From: Edaphochlamys debaryana
Lineage: Eukaryota > Chlorophyta > Chlorophyceae > Chlamydomonadales
Direction of reading: 5' to 3'
Length of the DNA: 64,000 nt
Assembly: GCA_016858145.1 (NCBI GenBank)
Contig: JAEHOE010000006.1
Span: forward strand, 682,001 to 746,000
Every line of letters begins with the position of its first letter. The stretch's first letter is position 1. The notes under the pieces are model-generated. The model did no database searches. It had not been told where the DNA came from and saw only the letters and a list, made by a program, of their open reading frames with translations. Of this stretch, positions 6,181 to 30,040 are shown piece by piece. Position numbers and translations under genes: made by a program.

Positions 6181-6797
6181 TCATTGACTGGGGCCACAGC
6201 TCAGACACACATCCCTTAGTGCAAGCGGGCCCTCTCTGAAGCGGAGACACCCCCTGTGGATGAAGGGGTCGCTTTGTGGCAACTGAAGGAAGGCAGGGAG
6301 GTGACAGGCGAGGGAGGGGGCTGAAGCTGGCTGCTGGGGGGCTGGAGGGCCGCAGCACACCTTGTGCACTGCCGCAGCCTCCGTGTGCGCCCTCGCCCTC
6401 CACAGTGCTCCGCAGCCCTCCTCAGCACACATGAGGGGCGCGCCACTGCCGCCGCCCCGCGGCACCTTGGCCGGCTTTGAAGGCCCTTTGCCCCCCCAGC
6501 GCTGCCACGGCCGACCCCTCCCGCACACACGTAGACACCCCTCTCCGCCCCACCCCCTCCTCCTGCAGATGGCGCCCGCAGGCCCCCCTGCGCTCCAGGC
6601 GCGTGCGTGCCTTGCTCCTGCGGCCCGCCCGCTGGCCGGCTGGGGCCTGGCGTCGGGCGCTGACACGCAGGCCCTGGCCGCCCCCCCCCCTCAGCGGGCC
6701 CGAGGGGAATGGCTGGCCTCGTCGGACGCGCGCTGGAGCAGGGTGTTGGCCGGAAGTCAACGGTATGTAATACATTGAGAATGCAGAAATGGCATCC

Positions 6798-6881
6798 GGG
6801 GTATTAGCTCAGTGGTAGAGCGCGCGCTTCGCAGCTGCGAGAAGATGCGTGAGGTCACCGGATCGATCCCGGTATGCTCCA
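6798..6881 (+). tRNA. tRNA-Ala(CGC) with a 12-nt intron
   Basis: A complete cloverleaf can be drawn. The acceptor GGGGTAT pairs with ATGCTCC (two G-T wobbles), the D arm is GCTC/GAGC and the anticodon stem CGCGC/GCGTG. The loop TTCGCA-T has anticodon CGC at 6830-6832, and the T arm is ACCGG-ATCGATC-CCGGT. The discriminator is A and no CCA is encoded, as expected in a nucleus. A 12-nt intron (6834-6845) interrupts the loop after position 37, the canonical place. The T loop starts with A instead of T, in both intact copies. It lies 6 bp upstream of tRNA-Cys. Confidence 0.92.
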
Positions 6882-6887
6882 TTCTCA

Positions 6888-6959
6888 GGGTCTTTAGCTC
6901 AGTGGTAGAGCAGCTGACTGCAGATCAGCAGGTCTCGAGTTCGAACCTCGAAGGGCCCT
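6888..6959 (+). tRNA. tRNA-Cys(GCA)
   Basis: A 72-nt cloverleaf with acceptor GGGTCTT/AGGGCCC, D arm GCTC/GAGC, anticodon stem GCTGA/TCAGC, loop CTGCAGA (anticodon GCA) and T arm TCGAG-TTCGAAC-CTCGA. The discriminator is T (U). There is no intron. It sits directly downstream of tRNA-Ala(CGC), and the pair recurs inverted at 13964-14125. Confidence 0.95.
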
Positions 6960-7462
6960 ATCTTATTGCGGCCCCGTTCAGCCCCATCCCGACCGCTTTT
7001 TGCCGCGCGCTCGCGCCTGTGCATACACCACTTGAGGTCCCTGCTGCTGCTGTGCCAGCATGGGCGGGGCGGCCTCGGGGGCGCAAGTGGGGCCCGCCCA
7101 TGGATGACCCATGTCCACGGTGCGGTCCGTCCCTCAACCCAACACCTCAACCCGCCTCGCCCCGCAACGCATTGCGCCACCTCTGGCCTCGGCCGCCTCC
7201 ATCAGTGCTTCAGGTTGCCCCAGATGCCAGGGCATAACATGGGCGTACCGGGCTATGCTCGCCAGCACTGCTTTTGCAGGGGGTAGCGCCTGGGCTGCAC
7301 AAGCCGGTGGGGAGGGCCGACCTGGGCTAGGCGAAAGGGCGGGGGAGCACGGCTCCGAGCCACGCCACGTCCACGCCTTGCGAGCCTAGAGGCTGTAGAC
7401 CGGCCTGCATCACCTCCCAGGCGCCTGCCACTCAAGCGGGTACGACACGAGCCAACCAACAT

Positions 7463-7467
7463 TTACA
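7463..7467 (-). terminator. Candidate TGTAA poly(A) signal for the 200-aa gene
   Basis: TGTAA on the minus strand, about 310 nt past the stop at 7779 and inside the inverted-repeat arm. TGTAA is the usual green-algal poly(A) signal. The mirrored copy in the other arm (13456) serves the gene on the far side. Confidence 0.5.
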
Positions 7468-7778
7468 AGGCACAGCCCGTGCACGGTGCACCCTGCACCA
7501 CCATCACGCACCAGCCGGCCCCTGCCGCCTGCCGCTCACGGGTCCCGGCTTGCCCCTGACCGCCTGTCCAGCCAACATGCGACCCCTGACGTCCCCTCCC
7601 TGCTACCTGGCAAGCTCCCCATTGCACCAATCAGGCCGAGGTCCCAGGGGTAGACGAGCTGGGCGCCACCCACAAGGGCCGCCCGCGCTTGAGGGCCCGG
7701 TTCGCTCTCCTATGCCAGTCCCCGGCCCCCGCTTCCCACGCGGCTCCCTCCACCACCCCCGCCGCGCCTCATCCGCCC

Positions 7779-13151: not shown

Positions 13152-13455
13152 GGGCAGCATGGCGGCAAAGGCCGGGCAATGGGGATGCCGATCAGGGCCG
13201 GGGACTGGCAGAGGAGAGCGAACCGGGCCCTCAAGCGCGTGCGGCCCTTGTGGGTGGCGCCCAGCTCGCCTACCCCTGGGACCTCGGCCTGATTGGTGCA
13301 ATGGGGAGCTTGCCAGGTAGCAGGGAGGGGACGTCAGGGGTCGCATGTTGGCTGGACAGGCGGTCAGGGGCAAGCCGGGACCCGTGAGCGGCAGGCGGCA
13401 GGGGCCGGCTGGTGCGTGATGGTGGTGCAGGGTGCACCGTGCACGGGCTGTGCCT

Positions 13456-13460
13456 TGTAA
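13456..13460 (+). terminator. Candidate TGTAA poly(A) signal for the 782-aa gene
   Basis: TGTAA, 305 nt past the stop at 13151. It is the mirror image of the TGTAA used by the divergent gene on the other side of the core, so both genes appear to end in the same duplicated 3' sequence. Confidence 0.5.
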
Positions 13461-13963
13461 ATGTTGGTTGGCTCGTGTCGTACCCGCTTGAGTGGCAGGC
13501 GCCTGGGAGGTGATGCAGGCCGGTCTACAGCCTCTAGGCTCGCAAGGCGTGGACGTGGCGTGGCTCGGAGCCGTGCTCCCCCGCCCTTTCGCCTAGCCCA
13601 GGTCGGCCCTCCCCACCGGCTTGTGCAGCCCAGGCGCTACCCCCTGCAAAAGCAGTGCTGGCGAGCATAGCCCGGTACGCCCATGTTATGCCCTGGCATC
13701 TGGGGCAACCTGAAGCACTGATGGAGGCGGCCGAGGCCAGAGGTGGCGCAATGCGTTGCGGGGCGAGGCGGGTTGAGGTGTTGGGTTGAGGGACGGACCG
13801 CACCGTGGACATGGGTCATCCATGGGCGGGCCCCACTTGCGCCCCCGAGGCCGCCCCGCCCATGCTGGCACAGCAGCAGCAGGGACCTCAAGTGGTGTAT
13901 GCACAGGCGCGAGCGCGCGGCAAAAAGCGGTCGGGATGGGGCTGAACGGGGCCGCAATAAGAT

Positions 13964-14035
13964 AGGGCCCTTCGAGGTTCGAACTCGAGACCTGCTGATC
14001 TGCAGTCAGCTGCTCTACCACTGAGCTAAAGACCC
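13964..14035 (-). tRNA. tRNA-Cys(GCA), second copy
   Basis: Reverse-complement copy of the gene at 6888-6959 with the same cloverleaf, anticodon GCA and discriminator. No difference in the 72 nt was seen. It lies 6 bp from the tRNA-Ala copy. Confidence 0.95.
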
Positions 14036-14041
14036 TGAGAA

Positions 14042-14125
14042 TGGAGCATACCGGGATCGATCCGGTGACCTCACGCATCTTCTCGCAGCTGCGAAGCGCG
14101 CGCTCTACCACTGAGCTAATACCCC
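14042..14125 (-). tRNA. tRNA-Ala(CGC) with 12-nt intron, second copy
   Basis: Reverse-complement copy of 6798-6881. It has the same 12-nt intron after position 37, anticodon CGC and A-initial T loop, so the unusual T loop is not a random defect of one copy. Confidence 0.92.
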
Positions 14126-14585
14126 GGATGCCATTTCTGCATTCTCAATGTATTACATACCGTTGACTTCCGGCCAACACCCTGCTCCAGCGCGCGTCCG
14201 ACGAGGCCAGCCATTCCCCTCGGGCCCGCAGAGGGGGGGGGGCGGCCAGGGCCTGCGTGTCAGCGCCCGACGCCAGGCCCCAGCCGGCCAGCGGGCGGGC
14301 CGCAGGAGCAAGGCACGCACGCGCCTGGAGCGCAGGGGGGCCTGCGGGCGCCATCTGCAGGAGGAGGGGGCGGGGCGGAGAGGGGTGTCTGCGTGTGTGC
14401 GGGAGGGGGCGGCCGTGGCAGCGCTGGGGGGGCAAAGGGCCTTCAAAGCCGGCCAAGGTGCCGCGGGGCGGCGGCAGTGGCGCGCCCCTCATGTGTGCTG
14501 GGGAGGGCTGCGGAGCACTGTGGAGGGCAAGGGCGCACGCGGGGGCTGTGGCAGTGCGCAAGGTGTGCTGCTGCCCTCCAGCCCC

Positions 14586-15235: not shown

Positions 15236-15382
15236 CCAGCGGCCAGCTTCAACCCCCCTCTCGGCCCCCTGCCCTCCTTCAGTTGCCACAAAGCGACCCC
15301 TTCATCCACAGGGGGTGTCTCCGCTTCAGAGAGGGCCCGCTTGCACTAAGGGATGTGTGTCTGAGCTGTGGCCCCAGTCAAT

Positions 15383-15941
15383 GCAGGTGAAGTCGGCCAA
15401 CCACTGCAGCACGAGAGCAACCCGCACAGCAGGTCAGCAGCGACTAGGCCCTGGCCAGGACACCGCTCTACGCAGCAGGCAGCACCCTCCACGGCCTCCA
15501 GCCCACCACTCACTCACTCAATCACTCCCACCAGCCCAGCCCCTCTTACTGGTGCAACAGGTAAACGATCGCAGCCCCATTTGTGCAAGTGCAAATTGTC
15601 GTAGCCCCAAATGAGAATGCACCTTCCCTCCGCCCGCGAACGTGGCCCTTCCGTCCTAATGCATACAAAGGCTATCGCGTGTTACTCTCTCGCTCTCTCT
15701 CCCAAAGGCCGCCTGACGCCCCTGGGCTCAGGGGCTTGACAATGCCTCGCTCACGTACCCAACGGGTCAGGTCACCCAACTGCTCTCACCCTCATGCATC
15801 TCACCCTTGCCAGACTCAGCTTCGTGCATTTCGCCCTTGCCAAGGCACCGCTCTGTGTTTGGCTCTGAACCCTGAAGTCTGGACTGTCTCGGATGATTTC
15901 CTCCGAATCCTGCGACCGCCACAACACTGCTCAAGTTAGGC
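15383..15941. other. Short intergenic stretch with CACT/CATCT-type simple repeats
   Basis: It contains CACTCACTCACTCAATCACT near 15505-15530 and repeated TCACCC/TTGCC phrases near 15785-15840. No gene is seen. Confidence 0.4.
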
Positions 15942-23383: not shown

Positions 23384-26300
23384 TCACGCCTGCCGTGCCC
23401 GCTTGGCCTTGCCGGCCTTGGGTGCAATCAGCACTATCCCTCCCTCCTCGTCCTCCGTCTCCTCCCCATCATCTGCGGCCCGCTTCGTCTCGTCCTTCCC
23501 GCCCCCGTCCCCCTTGCGCTTTTTTCCTTTTGTCCCCACGGCCTCCTCCGCTCCGGCCTCTTCCGCACCCTCCTCCGCCCCCTTGCGCTTGCCTTTTGTC
23601 CGCTCCCCGCCTCCGCCGCCATCCCCTTGCCGCCCACTAGGCCCTGGCTGCTCCGGCGCAGGCTCGTCGGCCTGGGCGCGCTCGCCCTTGCCCTTCTTCC
23701 TCTTCTTCCTTGGGCCCTCCTCCTGCGCCGCCTCCGCCTCCGCCGGAGCCCCGCTGGGGCCTGCCTGCTCCGCGGCGGCTCCTGCCCCTGCCCCCGCCTC
23801 CTCATCCTCGGCCTCCGCCGCCCGCTTGCGCTTTGCCTTCTTGCCGCCCTCCTCCTTGGCCGCCCCGCCTTCCCGCCGCTGCTTCTTGGCGGCTTTCCGG
23901 GCGGCTCTCCGCTCCTCCTCAGGAGTCCGCCCCTCCGCGTCCTCCTGCGCCTCCTCCTGCGGCTCCTCCTCCTCCGCCCCCTTGTCCCCTGGCGCAGGGG
24001 CCTCGGGCTCCCCGGCCTCCGCGTGCTGCCCGCCCCTGCCGCCGCCGTCCTCGCCCTTGCCCGCCCCGCGCTCCTTGCCCTTGCCCTTGCCGCCCTTGCC
24101 GCCCTTATCGCCGCCCGCCCCCGTCCCCGCCCCAAACATGGCCGCGAAGGCGTCCAGGGTCTTGGTGGAGGAGGCCGCGTGGCGGCGCCACTGCTCGGGG
24201 TCACGCTTGTAAGCCTCCACACCCACCTGGGTTGAGAAGGGAGGGTGGGAGAAGACGGGACAGGTGTGTGGCGGGAGAGGTGTGTGAGGATCGAGGCAGA
24301 AGAGCGGCAGAGGCGAATGGACGATTGAGCTAACGTTGGAAGTTAGGGCAGAGGGGAGCAGCTTGGGGATTTGTTCCCCGGTTAACCAACTCCCCCGGCC
24401 ACTGTATAGGTCGAGGAAGTACGATGCCGGGTGGATTGCTTTAGTGTGACTAAAGGCCCGCAAAGGCGCACGGTGAGAGCTACCGAGCGGGAAGACGCAC
24501 ACAGAAGGTGAGCTATTGTTGGCATGTGTTGCACAAATGAACTGTAATAACATGACATCGCAAAGCACGTGCCAACTTTGATTGACAAAGGCATGTTCCC
24601 CGGTTAACCAACTCCCCCGGCCACTGTATTGGTCGAGGAAGTACGATGCCGGGTGGATTGCTCTAGTGTGACTAAAGGCCCGCAAAGGCGCACGGTGAGA
24701 GCTACCGAGCGGGAAGACGCACACAGAAGGTGAGCTATTGTTGGCATGTGTTGCACAAATGAACTGTAATAACATTACATCGCAAAGCACGTGCCAACTT
24801 TGATTGACAGAGGCATGTTCTCCGGTTAACCAACTCCCCCGGCCACTGTATGGGTCGAGGAAGTACGATGCCGGGTGGATTGCTCTAGTGTGACAAAAGG
24901 CCCGCAGAGGCGCACGGTGAGAGCTACCAAGCGGGAAGACGCACACGTGGGAGGGGTTCGTGCAGGGTGATGTCGTGCACGGCTTGCGTAAATGCGGACA
25001 CGTTGCGAGTACAGGAGTGAAAATGAGGGCTGCCCATGTGGTACGGTGCGGAAAGGGGTGTCGCCCGGCTAACCAACTCTCCCGGCCACTGTATAGGTCG
25101 CGGAAAAGTTACGATACCGGCTGTGTTCGATGTCGTGTGACCAAAGGCCCGCAGAGGCGCACGGAGAAAAGCTACCGAGCGGGAAGACGCACACGGTGGC
25201 AGGTGCTTAGTCTCTCACCCGGCCCCCGACCCCAAACCCAAACCCATATCTTTGCCCCGGCCCCACCCACCCCGCCCCCTCCCTCCCCACCTTGCGCATG
25301 AGCGCCGGCCCCCAGTGGCAGCCCTCGAGGGCCTTCTCGGCCGAGGCCAGGCGGGACACAATGGCCTCCTTGGCGGGGGCGTCCTGTGGGGGTGAGGGCA
25401 GGGGTGGGTGGGTGGGTGGGTCAATGGGGGCAGAGAGTCCTGCACCTCAAGCATGCGCAGTGCACACTGCCCTCAGACTTCTCCGTTGCCTTCTGCACCC
25501 TCCCTCCCAGTCACCCCCGGCACCCCCCCACTCACCCCCAGGCGGTACGCGCTCTCCACCAGGAAGGCGCCCGAGCCCGTGGTGGCCACCGCCTCCCACC
25601 GCCCCGCCAGCGCCCCCAGCAGCTGCGCCTTGACCTTGGCGGGGGCGTTGCCGCCCAGCAGCGCCTCCAGCACACGGGAGCCCGAGGGGTCGGCGCCCAC
25701 CCTGGAGGGAGGAGGGAGAGGGGAGGGAGGGAGGAGAGGGAGGGAGGCGGTGCGGGTGGTGGCGAGGGAGAGGAATGCAGGACGCTGCAGGCCACAGCGG
25801 CCGGGCCCACACCACCGACGGAACCTGACATCCTCCGGTGCCCGCGCTCCTCTTGGGGAGACCGCCACTACCCCACCTGCCCGCACCTGACCACACCGAA
25901 CCCCGCCCGGCGGGCCCCCCCCGGCCCCACCTGGCCGCGTCGTTGGGCTGCAGCGCCGCCACTGAGTCGGTGAAGGCGCGGCAGGCGCCCTGGCCGTAGC
26001 GCAGGACCTACGGAGAGGCGGAGGGAGTGGGGCGGGTGGTTGGTGCTCGGAACTGGAACCAGGGATGGCACAACAGGAAGGGGGAGGAGCCAGGACGCAA
26101 GGCGTGCCCAGGTCCGGTCGGGCACAGGCGCAGGCAGGGCCGGCCTGGGGGAGCGCCCCTCTTCTCTCCGGTTTCCAACTCGTCAAAGATCATCCTTCCC
26201 CGCCCCACCTGGATGAGGATGGAGCAGCCCACGGGTGACAGCCGCTGCGCCCCGCCCGCGGCCCGTGTGGCGGCGGAGTAGGGCTCGTTGGCGCCCACGC

Positions 26301-29300
26301 TGGCGAAAGAGTCCAGGCACAGCAGCGCGGGGGCGAGCGCGGCGTCGCCTGGGCGGAGGAGGGAAGGGGAGTGGAGGGGCGGAGGGGAGGAGGAGGGGAG
26401 GGTGGGGCGGTGAGAGGTGGAGGAGGTAGCAGGTGGTTGGGTGCGAGGGTTTGGCTGGGATGAGGCTTGGCGAGTGTGGGTGTGTGGGGGTTTGTTCCCC
26501 GGTTAACCAACTCCCCCGGCCACTGTATTGGTCGAGGAAGTACGATGCCGGGTGGATCGCTCTAGTGTGACTAAAGGCCCGCAAAGGCGCACGGTGAGAG
26601 CTACCGAGCGGGAAGACGCACACGGAAGGTGAGCTATTGTTGGCATCCACAACACAGATGCGGCATGTAAACGTATCATATCCCAAACAGGAAGCACGTG
26701 CTGTTGTTTATGAACACAGGGGCATGTTCCCCGGTTAACCAACTCCCCCGGCCACTGTATGGGTCGAGGAAGTACGATGCCGGGTGGATTGCTCTAGTGT
26801 GACTACAGGCCCGCAGAGGCGCACGGTGAGAGCTACCGAGCGGGAAGACGCACACGTATAGAGGGCCGTGCGTGCATGCTCCCAGTCGAGCGCCACCCCC
26901 GACCCTCTAACCTGACCCACGACTCAAGCAATACCAGCGGCCGCGCCCCGATACCGGTATCTTCCTGACCCCAAAGACCCCGCCCACAGCCCCCGCCAAG
27001 GGCCCCCCGCTACCCAACCCACCCTTGAGCCCAGCGGGCGAGGGCATGGAGCCCAGGGCCGACGCCAGCGCAGCGCACATCTCCTTCTGGCACACGCCGT
27101 GCCACCCCAGCGCCGCCGCCAGCGCCGCCACCACGCCGCCGCGCCGCCGCGTGAGCAGGTCGGACAGCAGCCCCTGCAGCCCCTCAAACTGGGACTTGGC
27201 CTGGGGGGGTGGAGGGGAGGGGAGGGGAGGAAGCGCGGGGAGGGCAGCGCATTAGGGCGTGTTGGTGGGGGAGGGAGGAAGAGTGCAGAGGAGAGAGCGG
27301 GGCGGGGCGGCACGAGAGCTCCTGAGGTGCAGCCGCCACAAACGCTATGAGGGGCCGTATGCGGATGCGTGGGTGCTTGTGGGTAGCATGGTTGCGTGGC
27401 TCAGGATTAGACTCAAGCTACTGTAAGCTCATGTTAAGAATCGAGTAGGCAAAGGTATCGTCATCGCCAGTGCCAGTGAGTGAAACGCGTGGCGGGAGGA
27501 GCGACCGCGCCCAGCCCCGCGCTGCAGAACCCCTGCTCGTCGCACCCCCCCGTACCTACGGCATCCCCCACGCCAGCCCCACCAACCCCCCCGAACCCTG
27601 CAACCCCCACCAGCCCCCACGTCCTTCCCCTCCCTTCGCCCACGCCCCCCGCTTGTACCCCTCCCCCGCGCTCACCACCTCCTTGCTGGGTGCCGCCGCC
27701 AGCGCCGCCTGCACCACGAAGTTGGCCGAGGGGTGCTGCGCCAGCTCGGCCAGGCGGGGCGCCAGGAAGCGGCGGTGGAACTCCTCCAGGATGGGGGCGG
27801 GCAGCACCTGCAGGGGGCGGGAGGAGGGGGAGGGAGGGAAGGGGAGGGGAGGGATGAGGGTGGGTGTGGAGAGGCGCGCGGTAAGGGGGCAGGAAGAGGT
27901 GTGGGCGGGGGGGTGGCAGCCGGTGCCTGAGAGGAGAGCGAGTGCAGAAGGGTGGGGTGGGCTGGGTGCAATGTGGTGGATGGGTGCAGTAGTGCTGCGC
28001 GGCAGAGGCAGGGCGCACAGGCCCGGAATCTTGGGAGCGGCGGCTCAGGATTAGACTCAAGCTACTGTAAGCTCATGTTAGGAATCGAGTAGGCAAGGGT
28101 ATCGTCATCGCCGGCCCGCTCCCACTTCACATGCATGCGACGGTACAGTATCAACATGCCACGCACGATACCCACCGACACCTTCTGCGCCATCACCCCA
28201 CCCACTGCATCGCCCCATTAAGCACCCCCGCCCCACCGAGCCCCGTACCCCGCTCCCACCTGCAGCATCACCTCCGCCAGGTGCGAGGTGGTGGGGTCCG
28301 TCAGCAGCGCCACCACCTCCTCCTCCTTGCAGCCGCCCAGCACCGCCCCCGCGCCCCCCTTGGAGCGGTCGTCGATCACCGTCGAGCCCAGCAGCACCGG
28401 CACCAGCTGCCGGAGCGCCTTGCTGCGGGGGGGGAAGCGGGGAGGCACGGGGGTCGGAGGCAAGGAGCGGAGAGAGGTTGGATGAGGACGAGGGCCTGCC
28501 CCCATCAGGGCCTCACACCCGCCTTCCACCCCGCCTCCTCTCCGCCCCGCCTCCCTCTCCGCCCCTCTCCGCCCCACCGGTCGCTAGCCGCCGCCTTGAG
28601 CAGCGCCTGCAGCAGAGGGCAGGCGTAGGGGTGGTACACCAGCTCCCCCACCGTGGCGCCCGCGTAGTCGTCCGAGCACACCACGTCCACCAGCTTGGAC
28701 AGCAGGTCGGGGAAGCGGGCGGGCGGGGGCTCGTTGGCGCCGGCGCCCAGCAGCTCCGCCGCCAGGGCCGAGGCGCCGCCGGCCCCCGCCCCGCCCGCCC
28801 CGGGTCCCAGGCGCGAGGCCAGGCCGCCCGCGGGGGCATCCTCGGTCTTGGCGCGCTGTGGGAGGGTGGGGTGGGTCGTGGAAAGGTAATGGAATGGGTT
28901 CGGTACAGGATACACATCAGCCGTCACCGTTTCCCATCCCACACCACACCGCTGCTTTCCCCAAACCCTCGGCCGGCACGGAGCCCGCCGCACCTTGTTG
29001 GACAGCCCCGGCAGCTGCTGCTGCGCCGCCGCCGCCGCGCTCTTGACCGCGGGCGGCAGCACGTTGCGCCCGGCCGCCGCGCACAGCAGGCGCCGCACGA
29101 CGTGCGTCGCGAAGCGGTCCGTGGCGTAGTCGTACAGGTGGGGCGCGACGGCCTCAAACAGCAGGGTCAGCACCTGAGGGCAGGGGCAGGCCGGATTGAG
29201 GCAGGATCAGGCAAGGGCGGGCGGAGGCCCACGGGGGTGACGTGGGATGGAGACAGGGAGGCGGGCGGCCTGGGGCTGAGTGGCATCAAGGCAAGGGAAG

Positions 29301-30040
29301 GGCGCTGTGGCGCGCGGGGGGGGATCTCAGCCTCACCTTTTGAAACTCGTCGAACTCCTCCTGGCTCATGGAGTCCAGCTGCGACTCCAGGCGCACCAGC
29401 AGCTTCTCGACCACGTGAGAGCCGAAGGGGCTGCGGGGGGGACCCGGGGGGGTAGGGGGAAGCGGGCGGCGCAGGGGGGATTCAGGTCTGTGTGTTTGGG
29501 AGCGGGAGGCTGGGGCCGGGCTGAGGTATGCACTGCTCCCCTACGATACCCGCTAGCGTAGACCCCTTGCCCCGGTGTGCCCCTCTCACGTTCGCACCTG
29601 CTGACGAGGGTGAAGAAGCCATCCACATCCGACACGGAGGTGATGAAGCGGAGCAGCTGCCCGGCCTGCGCCGCCGCCATCAGCGTCTCCACATGCCTGC
29701 TGCAGACGGGGTCGCCAGCGACCTTGACCTCCTTGCCAGCGATTTCCTCCAGCACGTTCCCGACAAGCAGCGATCGCTCCTCATCGTCGACAAGGGTCTT
29801 GAAGTGCGTGACGACCTCCTCAAGATACGCCACCGTTTCCGGGTTTACAACGGACCGGTTGCGGCGCCCGAAGCCGCGACCGCCGCCCTCGCCCTCGCCG
29901 TCCCCAAATTGAGCGGCATTGTCGGCGGGCGCCGCCTCCGCTCCGGCCTGCTCTTCGGCCGGCTCCGCAGCCGCAGCGACCTCCTCGGCTACCGGTGCCT
30001 CTTGAGGCTCCTCCTCAGCCTCACGTCGTCGCTTGCCCAT
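23384..30040 (-). CDS. NOP9: NOP9 / PUM23-type nucleolar Pumilio-repeat protein, 928 aa, snoRNA host
   Basis: Twelve exons close in phase: 30040-29598, 29430-29337, 29173-28994, 28855-28578, 28422-28260, 27807-27676, 27200-27023, 26348-26209, 26007-25931, 25701-25536, 25383-25291, 24226-23384. PUF-type repeats are spread along the protein: SPFGSHVVEKLLVRL, DRFATHVVRRLLCAA, HPSANFVVQAALAA, DPSGSRVLEALLGG. The N-terminus (MGKRRREAEEEP) and the roughly 240-residue Lys/Glu-rich tail (KKAKRKRAAEAEDEE, PRKKRKKGKG) suit a nucleolar protein. NOP9 in yeast and APUM23 in plants bind pre-rRNA and are needed for small-subunit rRNA processing. This protein is longer than most relatives because of the charged tail. 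Introns 27-28 kb and 24-27 kb carry snoRNA-like elements. The start is supported by a TATA box 74 bp upstream. Confidence 0.88.
24369..24502 (-). ncRNA. H/ACA snoRNA candidate, copy 1 (last intron of NOP9)
   Basis: This 134-nt element lies in sense with the host. Hairpin 1 has lower stem GTGTG/CACAC, an internal loop (CGTCTT and CCTTTAGT), stem CCCGC/GCGGG and inner stem CGGT/ACCG. An H box AAAGCA (ANANNA) follows directly, 14 nt below the loop top. Hairpin 2 has lower stem CCCGG/CCGGG, an internal loop (CATCGTAC and GTTGGTTAA) and upper stem TTCCTCGACC/GGCCGGGGGA. Then comes ACA with three nt to the 3' end, 16 nt below the loop top. The 14-16 nt spacing is the rule for H/ACA pseudouridylation guides. 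Pairings were drawn by eye. Confidence 0.65.
24591..24724 (-). ncRNA. H/ACA snoRNA candidate, copy 2
   Basis: Exactly 222 bp from copy 1, again 134 nt. The H box is AGAGCA, a change that keeps ANANNA. The terminal loop of hairpin 2 changes (CAATACAGT) while its stem is untouched. It ends ACA-TGC. Between the cores lies an 88-nt AT-richer linker that is also repeated. Confidence 0.65.
24813..24946 (-). ncRNA. H/ACA snoRNA candidate, copy 3
   Basis: Third tandem unit, 134 nt, with the linker lost afterwards. Substitutions fall mainly in loops (CCATACAGT) and in the guide pocket. One lower-stem pair of hairpin 2 is lost (CCGGA for CCGGG). H box AGAGCA and ACA-TGC are intact. Confidence 0.6.
25056..25194 (-). 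ncRNA. Diverged H/ACA snoRNA-like copy 4
   Basis: A 139-nt relative in the same intron, clearly diverged. It keeps the first hairpin (GTGTG/CACAC and CCCGC/GCGGG), the second-hairpin pocket GTTGGTTA and a terminal ACA. The H box is no longer a clean ANANNA, and hairpin 2 shows many changes. It may be a paralogous guide or a decaying copy. Confidence 0.4.
26490..26623 (-). ncRNA. H/ACA snoRNA candidate, copy 5 (a second NOP9 intron)
   Basis: A 134-nt copy in the intron between the exons at 27200-27023 and 26348-26209. It is nearly identical to copy 2, but the H box reads AGAGCG, losing the last A, so it may be less active. It is followed by a different linker and then copy 6, 232 bp away. Confidence 0.55.
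26722..26855 (-). ncRNA. H/ACA snoRNA candidate, copy 6
   Basis: A 134-nt copy with H box AGAGCA and ACA-TGC. The second-hairpin loop is CCAT-type, as in copy 3. The core ends abruptly at GTGTGCGTC, as in the other partial units, marking the unit boundary at the snoRNA 5' end. Confidence 0.62.
27398..27468 (-). ncRNA. Box C/D snoRNA candidate, copy A (NOP9 intron)
   Basis: A 71-nt element in sense with the host. It has the terminal stem (T)GGC/GCC(A), a box C-like ATGACGA (consensus RTGATGA, one change) six nt from the 5' end, and box D CTGA three nt from the 3' end. The guide-like sequence before box D is GAGTCTAATC. D' and C' are degenerate. An almost identical element sits in the next intron upstream in the gene while the flanks share nothing. 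I could not assign an rRNA target. Confidence 0.75.
28042..28112 (-). ncRNA. Box C/D snoRNA candidate, copy B (adjacent NOP9 intron)
   Basis: Seventy-one nt with only two differences from copy A, both outside the boxes and the D guide. The terminal stem extends with a C-G pair (CGGC/GCCG) where copy A has T-A (TGGC/GCCA), a compensatory change. It lies in the intron between the exons at 28422-28260 and 27807-27676. Confidence 0.78.

What the first reader, a model, noticed from the sequence alone, without database searches (positions are those of the whole stretch)
24369..26855. Six intronic copies of a 134-139-nt H/ACA snoRNA-like element inside a NOP9 gene
Two separate introns of the NOP9-like gene carry the same core, five times at exactly 134 nt and once diverged at 139 nt, always in host sense. 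The minus strand folds into two hairpins, each with a pocket-like internal loop. An ANANNA box sits 14 nt below the first pocket. An ACA sits 16 nt below the second and three nt from the end. Changes between copies fall mostly in loops, or keep the H box (AAAGCA to AGAGCA). A ribosome-biogenesis gene is a natural snoRNA host. Tandem units of 222 bp suggest local amplification plus a jump between introns. I do not know of this family.
Basis: partly seen in the sequence, partly recalled or inferred. Interest (0 to 1): 0.85.

Follow-up and report, generated by a model that had tools for sequence, protein, structure and literature searches.

The report
Six intronic H/ACA snoRNA gene copies
Two introns of what looks like a green alga's NOP9 gene carry six copies of a probable small nucleolar RNA of a familiar kind, which appears built to mark two neighbouring sites in small-subunit ribosomal RNA; it is a good new example rather than a new type of system.

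Summary
Six copies of a 134-nt element (one of 139-140 nt) lie on the minus strand at 24369-26855, in the sense of a 12-exon NOP9 gene whose 11 introns are all GT-AG in my model: four in a 1064-nt intron, two in a 674-nt intron. A DNA search of the 142-Mb assembly finds only these six places. A strict H box is present in four of six. I found one coherent pair of sites in a stand-in 18S rRNA: the 5' pocket fits the equivalent of human Psi1046 and the 3' pocket that of human Psi1081, 35 nt apart, both listed human pseudouridines. The 3' site needs three unpaired target bases and is weak alone; I added that option after seeing the match. The alga's own rRNA was not found, there is no covariation, and no RNA data exist here. 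Two more introns carry a box C/D-like element. Best reading: a tandemly amplified dual-guide H/ACA snoRNA, a new member of a known kind (algal intronic snoRNA clusters).

The parts
24369..24502 (-). c1, H/ACA snoRNA-like copy, 134 nt; H box AAAGCA; tail ACA+AAT
24591..24724 (-). c2, H/ACA snoRNA-like copy, 134 nt; H box AGAGCA; tail ACA+TGC
24813..24946 (-). c3, H/ACA snoRNA-like copy, 134 nt; H box AGAGCA; one mismatch in the 5' right guide and one lower-stem pair lost
25055..25194 (-). c4, diverged copy, 139-140 nt; H box degenerate (ACATCG); three guide letters differ from c1, all three paired as G.U
26490..26623 (-). c5, H/ACA snoRNA-like copy, 134 nt; H box degenerate (AGAGCG); tail ACA+AAC
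26722..26855 (-). c6, H/ACA snoRNA-like copy, 134 nt; H box AGAGCA; one mismatch in the 5' right guide
24227..25290 (-). NOP9 intron of 1064 nt, GT-AG, holds c4-c3-c2-c1
26349..27022 (-). NOP9 intron of 674 nt, GT-AG, holds c6-c5
23384..30040 (-). host gene: NOP9 (PUF-repeat nucleolar protein), 12 exons, 928 aa
   Evidence: reading frame of the last exon ends at 23384; splice model; PUF_NOP9 E 4.1e-65; PDB: Pumilio homolog 23 and Nucleolar protein 9
27398..27468 (-). box C/D-like element, copy A (GGC-G-ATGACGA ... CTGA-GCC), in the 475-nt NOP9 intron 27675-27201
28042..28112 (-). box C/D-like element, copy B, 97% identical to A, in the 452-nt NOP9 intron 28259-27808

Best explanation
The six elements are copies of one dual-guide box H/ACA snoRNA gene, transcribed within the NOP9 pre-mRNA, released from its two longest introns (directly or as a polycistronic intron precursor) and trimmed to about 134 nt under protection of H/ACA proteins. 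The 5' pocket (CGTCTTC / GCCTTTAGT) positions the 18S rRNA uridine equivalent to human U1046 (GGGGGC-UC-GAAGACG). The 3' pocket (CATCGT / TGGTTAA) positions the uridine equivalent to human U1081 (CAACCA-UAA-ACGATG). The pseudouridine synthase (Cbf5/dyskerin) then isomerises them. The array arose by tandem duplication plus a transfer between introns; cores stayed alike while spacers diverged. Shown by sequence: copies, host, strand, boxes, core conservation, pairing with a stand-in 18S. Predicted: the fold. Inferred: expression, processing, target modification.
For: Six sense-strand copies in two introns of NOP9, and only at this locus in the assembly. Spacer s12 vs s56 is 64/86 identical with 14 gapped columns (s23 vs s56: 67/82, 22 gapped), while cores c2 vs c5 are 131/134 with none. 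5' pocket of c1: 7 of 7 left positions Watson-Crick and 9 of 9 right positions paired (4 Watson-Crick, 5 G.U) at U981 of L013; 2 of 300 guide shuffles and 2 of 300 target shuffles reach its score with nine pocket registers allowed. L013 is eukaryotic SSU rRNA, Rfam model 14-1797 of 1831. Both pockets within 100 nt: 0 of 1000 guide shuffles reach the joint score. The two uridines are 35 nt apart in L013 (981, 1016), as are human Psi1046 and Psi1081 (PMC6182160, table passage seen). In diverged c4 all three guide letters that differ from c1 pair as G.U. Precedent for three unpaired bases and for a dual guide to this region: SNORA57 (PMC8522698, passages seen).
Against: No RNA evidence. No compensatory changes: 0 of 29 pairs change on both sides, and column shuffles do as well. 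Folding energies are only modestly below shuffles (z -2.03 to +0.05). The fold depends on the ends chosen: with two 5' bases cut off and other 3' ends, the 5' hairpin was lost. In c2, c3 and c6 the minimum-energy fold also pairs three hinge bases (GCA, part of the H box) with the last three bases, so hinge and tail are not free; c4's centroid is poor; and part of the 3' pocket is paired within itself. The target is a stand-in 18S, not this alga's; rDNA was not found in the assembly. The 3' pocket alone is not significant (37 of 300) and needs a 3-nt gap that I added after seeing the match. H box off consensus in 2 of 6 copies. No Rfam snoRNA match.
Confidence: 0.85

Rival explanations
1. H/ACA snoRNA, but orphan or with another target: the two 18S matches are coincidental or only the 5' one is real, and the 3' pocket is idle or guides an LSU or snRNA site I could not test.
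For: 3' pocket alone reached by 37 of 300 shuffles and needs three unpaired target bases; LSU coverage was partial (L011, 130 bases of L012, a recalled yeast 3' part); own rRNA not found; of snRNAs only U2 was tested.
Against: Joint test 0 of 1000; both sites are listed human pseudouridines at the same 35-nt spacing; c4 keeps pairing; U2 of this genome, read in sense, gives best scores of 18.0 (5') and 18.7 (3'), below 32.5 and 25.
Confidence: 0.2
2. Decaying snoRNA array: one or two copies are functional and the rest (c4, c5, perhaps c3 and c6) are pseudogenes on the way out.
For: Non-consensus H box in c4 and c5; one guide mismatch each in c3 and c6; one lower-stem pair lost in c3 and c4.
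Against: c4, 85-87% identical to the others, keeps most stem pairs, ACA and guide pairing; c5 keeps all stems of the stated structure and both guides.
Confidence: 0.3
3. A non-RNA intronic repeat: a tandem satellite or a small transposon that happens to fold.
For: Tandem 222-bp unit; no covariation; weak folding z-scores.
Against: Only six places in 142 Mb, all at this locus and in host sense; across the six copies conservation falls away just outside GTGTG and ACA, although c1, c2 and c5 share further sequence next to GTGTG; boxes, pockets and rRNA complementarity in register.
Confidence: 0.05

Closest known systems
Intronic snoRNA gene clusters of Chlamydomonas reinhardtii (Chen et al. 2008, Genetics 179:21; title seen in reference lists, text not held)
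   Same: Green alga; snoRNA genes mainly in polycistronic clusters, usually with multiple isoforms (PMC7671301 passages), with 'intronic gene clusters' in that paper's title.
   Different: I could not compare sequences, so whether this family is one of the 131 Chlamydomonas-only families mentioned in PMC5122169 (passage) is open.
Vertebrate SNORA57 (H/ACA)
   Same: Guide for two neighbouring 18S sites; one pocket acts on U1045/U1046; the other is reported with three unpaired bases instead of two (PMC8522698 passages).
   Different: Here the 5' pocket, not the 3', fits U1046, and the partner site is U1081 rather than U1004; sequence homology was not tested.
Ostreococcus tauri intronic snoRNAs
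   Same: 72 of 131 are intronic, and of the Ot-snoRNAs 33% are said to be hosted in ribosome-biogenesis genes (PMC7671301 passage).
   Different: There all but three exceptions are single-copy genes; here six copies.
Arabidopsis Pumilio homolog 23 and Nucleolar protein 9 (host protein family)
   Same: Host gene belongs here.
   Different: Host only; not part of the RNA's mechanism. Whether NOP9 of other species hosts snoRNAs was not tested.

Membership tests
Box H/ACA snoRNA | Two hairpins joined by a single-stranded hinge, with a single-stranded tail | tested here: met
   RNAalifold consensus; both hairpins in 6 of 6 minimum-energy folds, but hinge and tail wholly free only in c1, c4 and c5 (three extra pairs between them in c2, c3, c6). 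With shorter 5' ends the 5' hairpin was lost
Box H/ACA snoRNA | H box ANANNA in the hinge, about 14-16 nt below the 5' pocket top | tested here: inconclusive
   Box met in 4 of 6 (c1, c2, c3, c6); AGAGCG in c5 and ACATCG in c4. Spacing 14-15 nt in c1 by my count on the alignment. The 14-16 rule is recalled
Box H/ACA snoRNA | ACA three nt from the 3' end, 14-16 nt below the 3' pocket top | tested here: met
   ACA in 6 of 6; the three following nt are so by choice of the end, and the true RNA end is unknown. Spacing 14-15 nt in c1 by my count
Box H/ACA snoRNA | Bipartite guide complementary to rRNA or snRNA around a UN | tested here: met
   5' pocket: canonical two-base gap at U981 of L013, 2 of 300 shuffles. 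3' pocket: three-base gap, 37 of 300 alone; both jointly 0 of 1000 (partly after the fact). Stand-in rRNA
Box H/ACA snoRNA | Discrete stable RNA of this size bound by Cbf5/Nop10/Nhp2/Gar1 | not testable with these tools
   No RNA data
Box H/ACA snoRNA | Compensatory base changes in the stems across relatives | tested here: inconclusive
   0 of 29 pairs with two-sided change among six near-identical paralogues; no orthologues available
Known Rfam snoRNA family | Covariance-model match at gathering score | tested here: not met
   whole window: four tRNAs only; 24200-27000, E up to 10: 10 matches, none a snoRNA family
Transposon or dispersed repeat | Copies spread in the genome | tested here: not met
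   6 of 6 reported places at this locus; the tool calls its counts lower bounds

The most novel reading that the evidence does not exclude
A lineage-specific, amplified guide for the 18S site equivalent to human Psi1046 (normally unmodified in yeast) plus Psi1081, whose copies have begun to differ in guide and H box, so that dosage or isoform choice tunes how fully this part of the small subunit is modified, in step with splicing of NOP9, itself a small-subunit biogenesis factor that binds 18S rRNA.
Probability: 0.12. Interest if true: 0.55.

Novelty: new member of a known kind. Interest (0 to 1): 0.36.

Why it matters
It turns an untargeted hairpin repeat into a concrete prediction: this alga should carry pseudouridines at the 18S positions equivalent to human 1046 and 1081. 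If confirmed, a site that yeast normally lacks (PMC8522698 passage) would be shared by vertebrates and a green alga, guided by an RNA with a different pocket order from SNORA57. It also shows a single ribosome-biogenesis gene hosting both H/ACA-like and box C/D-like elements in its four longest introns.

Tried and rejected
Covariation as evidence: none among these paralogues. Rfam at gathering and at permissive thresholds: no snoRNA family for the H/ACA element (one miRNA match, mir-331, plus strand, E 0.76, overlaps the end of c5 and is taken as chance); only sub-threshold box C/D names for the second element. A covariance model found the six copies plus three weak plus-strand matches overlapping the array (E 0.045, 0.17, 0.31), which I take as antisense noise.

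Plus-strand folds of c1 and c5 do not show the two-hairpin plan.

Rejected alternative 3' targets: LSU GAAC[UG]GUACGG in the recalled yeast part (20.7) and CAAC[UUA]GUACGAG in L012 (23.7) score below 18S U1016 (25). U2 snRNA was first scanned on the wrong strand and redone in sense: no good site.

Post hoc points: I had spotted GAAGACG in recalled 18S before the scan, and I allowed three unpaired target bases only after seeing the CCA-UAA-ACGATG match by eye, so the figures are partly after the fact. The nulls used the pockets of c1 only and a home-made score; single null values do exceed the observed 5' score (maxima 34.1 and 38.8 against 32.5).

Two short LSU-like fragments in the assembly (L009, L010) give no Rfam match at gathering score.

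Full report
What is there. The minus strand of 24369-26855 holds six copies of one element: c1 24369-24502, c2 24591-24724, c3 24813-24946, c4 25055-25194, c5 26490-26623, c6 26722-26855. Five are 134 nt; c4 is 139-140 nt. Pairwise core identity is 93-98% among the five and 85-87% to c4. c1, c2 and c3 repeat every 222 bp.

Host. Splicing 12 exons on the minus strand (30040 down to about 23384) gives a 928-aa protein with 11 of 11 introns GT-AG (exon ends chosen by me from reading frames and splice signals). Its first 682 residues match Pfam PUF_NOP9 at profile positions 1-512 of 514, E 4.1e-65, and the solved structures matched are Pumilio homolog 23 and Nucleolar protein 9 (that Pumilio 23 is Arabidopsis's is recalled). 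c4-c3-c2-c1 lie in the intron 25290-24227 (1064 nt), c6-c5 in 27022-26349 (674 nt). The two next-longest introns (475 and 452 nt) hold the box C/D-like pair described below; the other seven are 138-229 nt.

Organism. The assembly has 141,892,200 bases in 502 contigs and the window is 67.5% GC. Edaphochlamys debaryana is listed at 142.14 Mb, 527 contigs and 67.1% GC (PMC8226300, Table 1 passage seen). This fits but does not prove identity.

Not dispersed. A DNA search of the whole assembly returns 6 matches, all at this locus (the second with E up to 10). The tool warns that very common words are skipped and that counts are lower bounds.

Fold and boxes. RNAalifold without constraint gives two hairpins, a hinge and a tail. 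In c2, c3 and c6 three further pairs join the hinge (GCA, part of the H box) to the last three bases; in c1, c4 and c5 hinge and tail are free; c4's centroid is poor (-26.2 against -46 kcal/mol); and part of the 3' pocket pairs within itself. Energies are only slightly better than dinucleotide shuffles (z -2.03, -1.75, -0.69, 0.05, -1.39, -0.74). With other ends, two 5' bases short, the 5' hairpin was not formed. There is no covariation: 0 of 29 pairs change on both sides. ACA is present in all six. A strict descriptor finds c1, c2 and c6 and nothing else on either strand of the window, while 20 shuffled one-strand windows give 4 hits.

Selection on the core. Spacers of the two introns are related but diverged (s12 vs s56 64/86 with 14 gapped columns; s23 vs s56 67/82 with 22), whereas cores c2 and c5 are 131/134 with no gaps. 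Within the first intron the spacers s12 and s23 are themselves 86/88 alike, a recent duplication. Gene conversion limited to the core would look alike, so this supports but does not prove function.

Targets. The alga's rDNA was not found: two 18S patterns gave 0 matches, an LSU query gave only two short fragments, and the rRNA family searches did not complete. With one base pair of the 5' upper stem opened, the 5' pocket CGTCTTC / GCCTTTAGT gives the best score of all pockets and targets at L013 U981, AGTTGGGGGC[UC]GAAGACGATC: 7 of 7 left positions Watson-Crick and 9 of 9 right positions paired, of which 5 are G.U. 2 of 300 guide shuffles and 2 of 300 block-shuffled target sets reach this.

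The 3' pocket CATCGT / TGGTTAA has its best match at L013 U1016, GTCTCAACCA[UAA]ACGATGCCG: 6 of 6 left and 6 of 7 right positions paired, with three unpaired target bases. Alone it is not significant (37 of 300 shuffles), and I allowed the three-base gap only after noticing the match. Both pockets within 100 nt at this joint score: 0 of 1000 guide shuffles, maximum 56.2 against 57.5 observed.

Independent support. The human table lists Psi1045, Psi1046, Psi1056 and Psi1081 in 18S (PMC6182160, table passage seen). L013 U981 and U1016 are 35 nt apart, as are 1046 and 1081; that they are the same positions also rests on my recalled human sequence around them. SNORA57 is reported to guide 1004 with three unpaired bases and, by its 3' pocket, 1045/1046; yeast normally has only Psi999 in that region (PMC8522698, passages seen). 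In the recalled yeast stretch neither pocket matches, in the recalled human stretch both do (28.1 and 23.7). In c4, three guide letters differ from c1 and all three pair as G.U; c3 and c6 each carry one mismatch in the right arm of the 5' pocket; the arms of c2 and c5 equal those of c1.

Second element in the same gene. A 71-nt element at 27398-27468 and 28042-28112 (97% identical; the only two places reported in the assembly) reads GGC-G-ATGACGA ... CTGA-GCC on the host strand: a terminal stem, a box C with one mismatch to RUGAUGA, and a perfect box D (box consensus as given in PMC8351944, passage seen). Of five permissive Rfam matches in that stretch, four are box C/D families on the host strand, E 0.73 to 8.5, all below gathering score. 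A stretch CCTTTGCCTAC pairs with LSU GTAGGTAAGGG in L011 with two G.U pairs; a 12-nt match at the box C end ranks above it in the same list, so this is no evidence by itself.

Known context. In Chlamydomonas and Euglena, snoRNA genes are reported as mainly in polycistronic clusters with multiple isoforms, and in Ostreococcus 72 of 131 are intronic with many ribosome-biogenesis hosts (PMC7671301, passages seen). 131 families are said to appear only in Chlamydomonas (PMC5122169, passages seen). The key survey (Chen et al. 2008) is not held, so I cannot say whether this family was already listed for a relative. A search for NOP9 with snoRNA, host gene and intron listed two papers; [quoted passage not shown] A search for Chlamydomonas, 18S rRNA, pseudouridine and snoRNA listed eight; I saw passages of three of them and read none through. 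Passages and one section on plant rRNA modification (PMC8351944, PMC9483110, PMC10281867) did not name these two sites; their supplementary tables were not available to me.

Verdict. A probable dual-guide H/ACA snoRNA family, amplified inside NOP9: a new member of a known kind, with a testable pair of 18S sites.

Noticed in passing
27398-27468 and 28042-28112 (-): Two 97%-identical 71-nt box C/D snoRNA-like elements in two further introns of the same NOP9 gene: boxes, terminal stem, and an 11-nt stretch that pairs with LSU rRNA of L011 with two G.U (not significant by itself).
   Followed up: partly
6338-7728 and 13195-14585 (also 6182-6308 and 15257-15383): A 1391-bp inverted duplication, arms 99% complementary and 5.5 kb apart, each carrying a tRNA-Ala(CGC) and tRNA-Cys(GCA) pair.
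   Followed up: partly
   Followed up: partly
24503-24590 (-), spacer between c1 and c2: The spacer folds into a hairpin closed by GTTGGCA/TGCCAAC (z -1.97), but the related spacer 26624-26721 does not keep it (z 0.71).
   Followed up: partly
NZ_CP050525.1 (L013), JABSRU010000113.1 (L011), IMGVR_UViG_3300009564_000091 (L012): Public records that hold eukaryotic rRNA under other names: an SSU rRNA filed as a bacterial plasmid, an LSU contig in a bacterial MAG, and an LSU piece at the start of a contig in the virus collection.
   Followed up: partly
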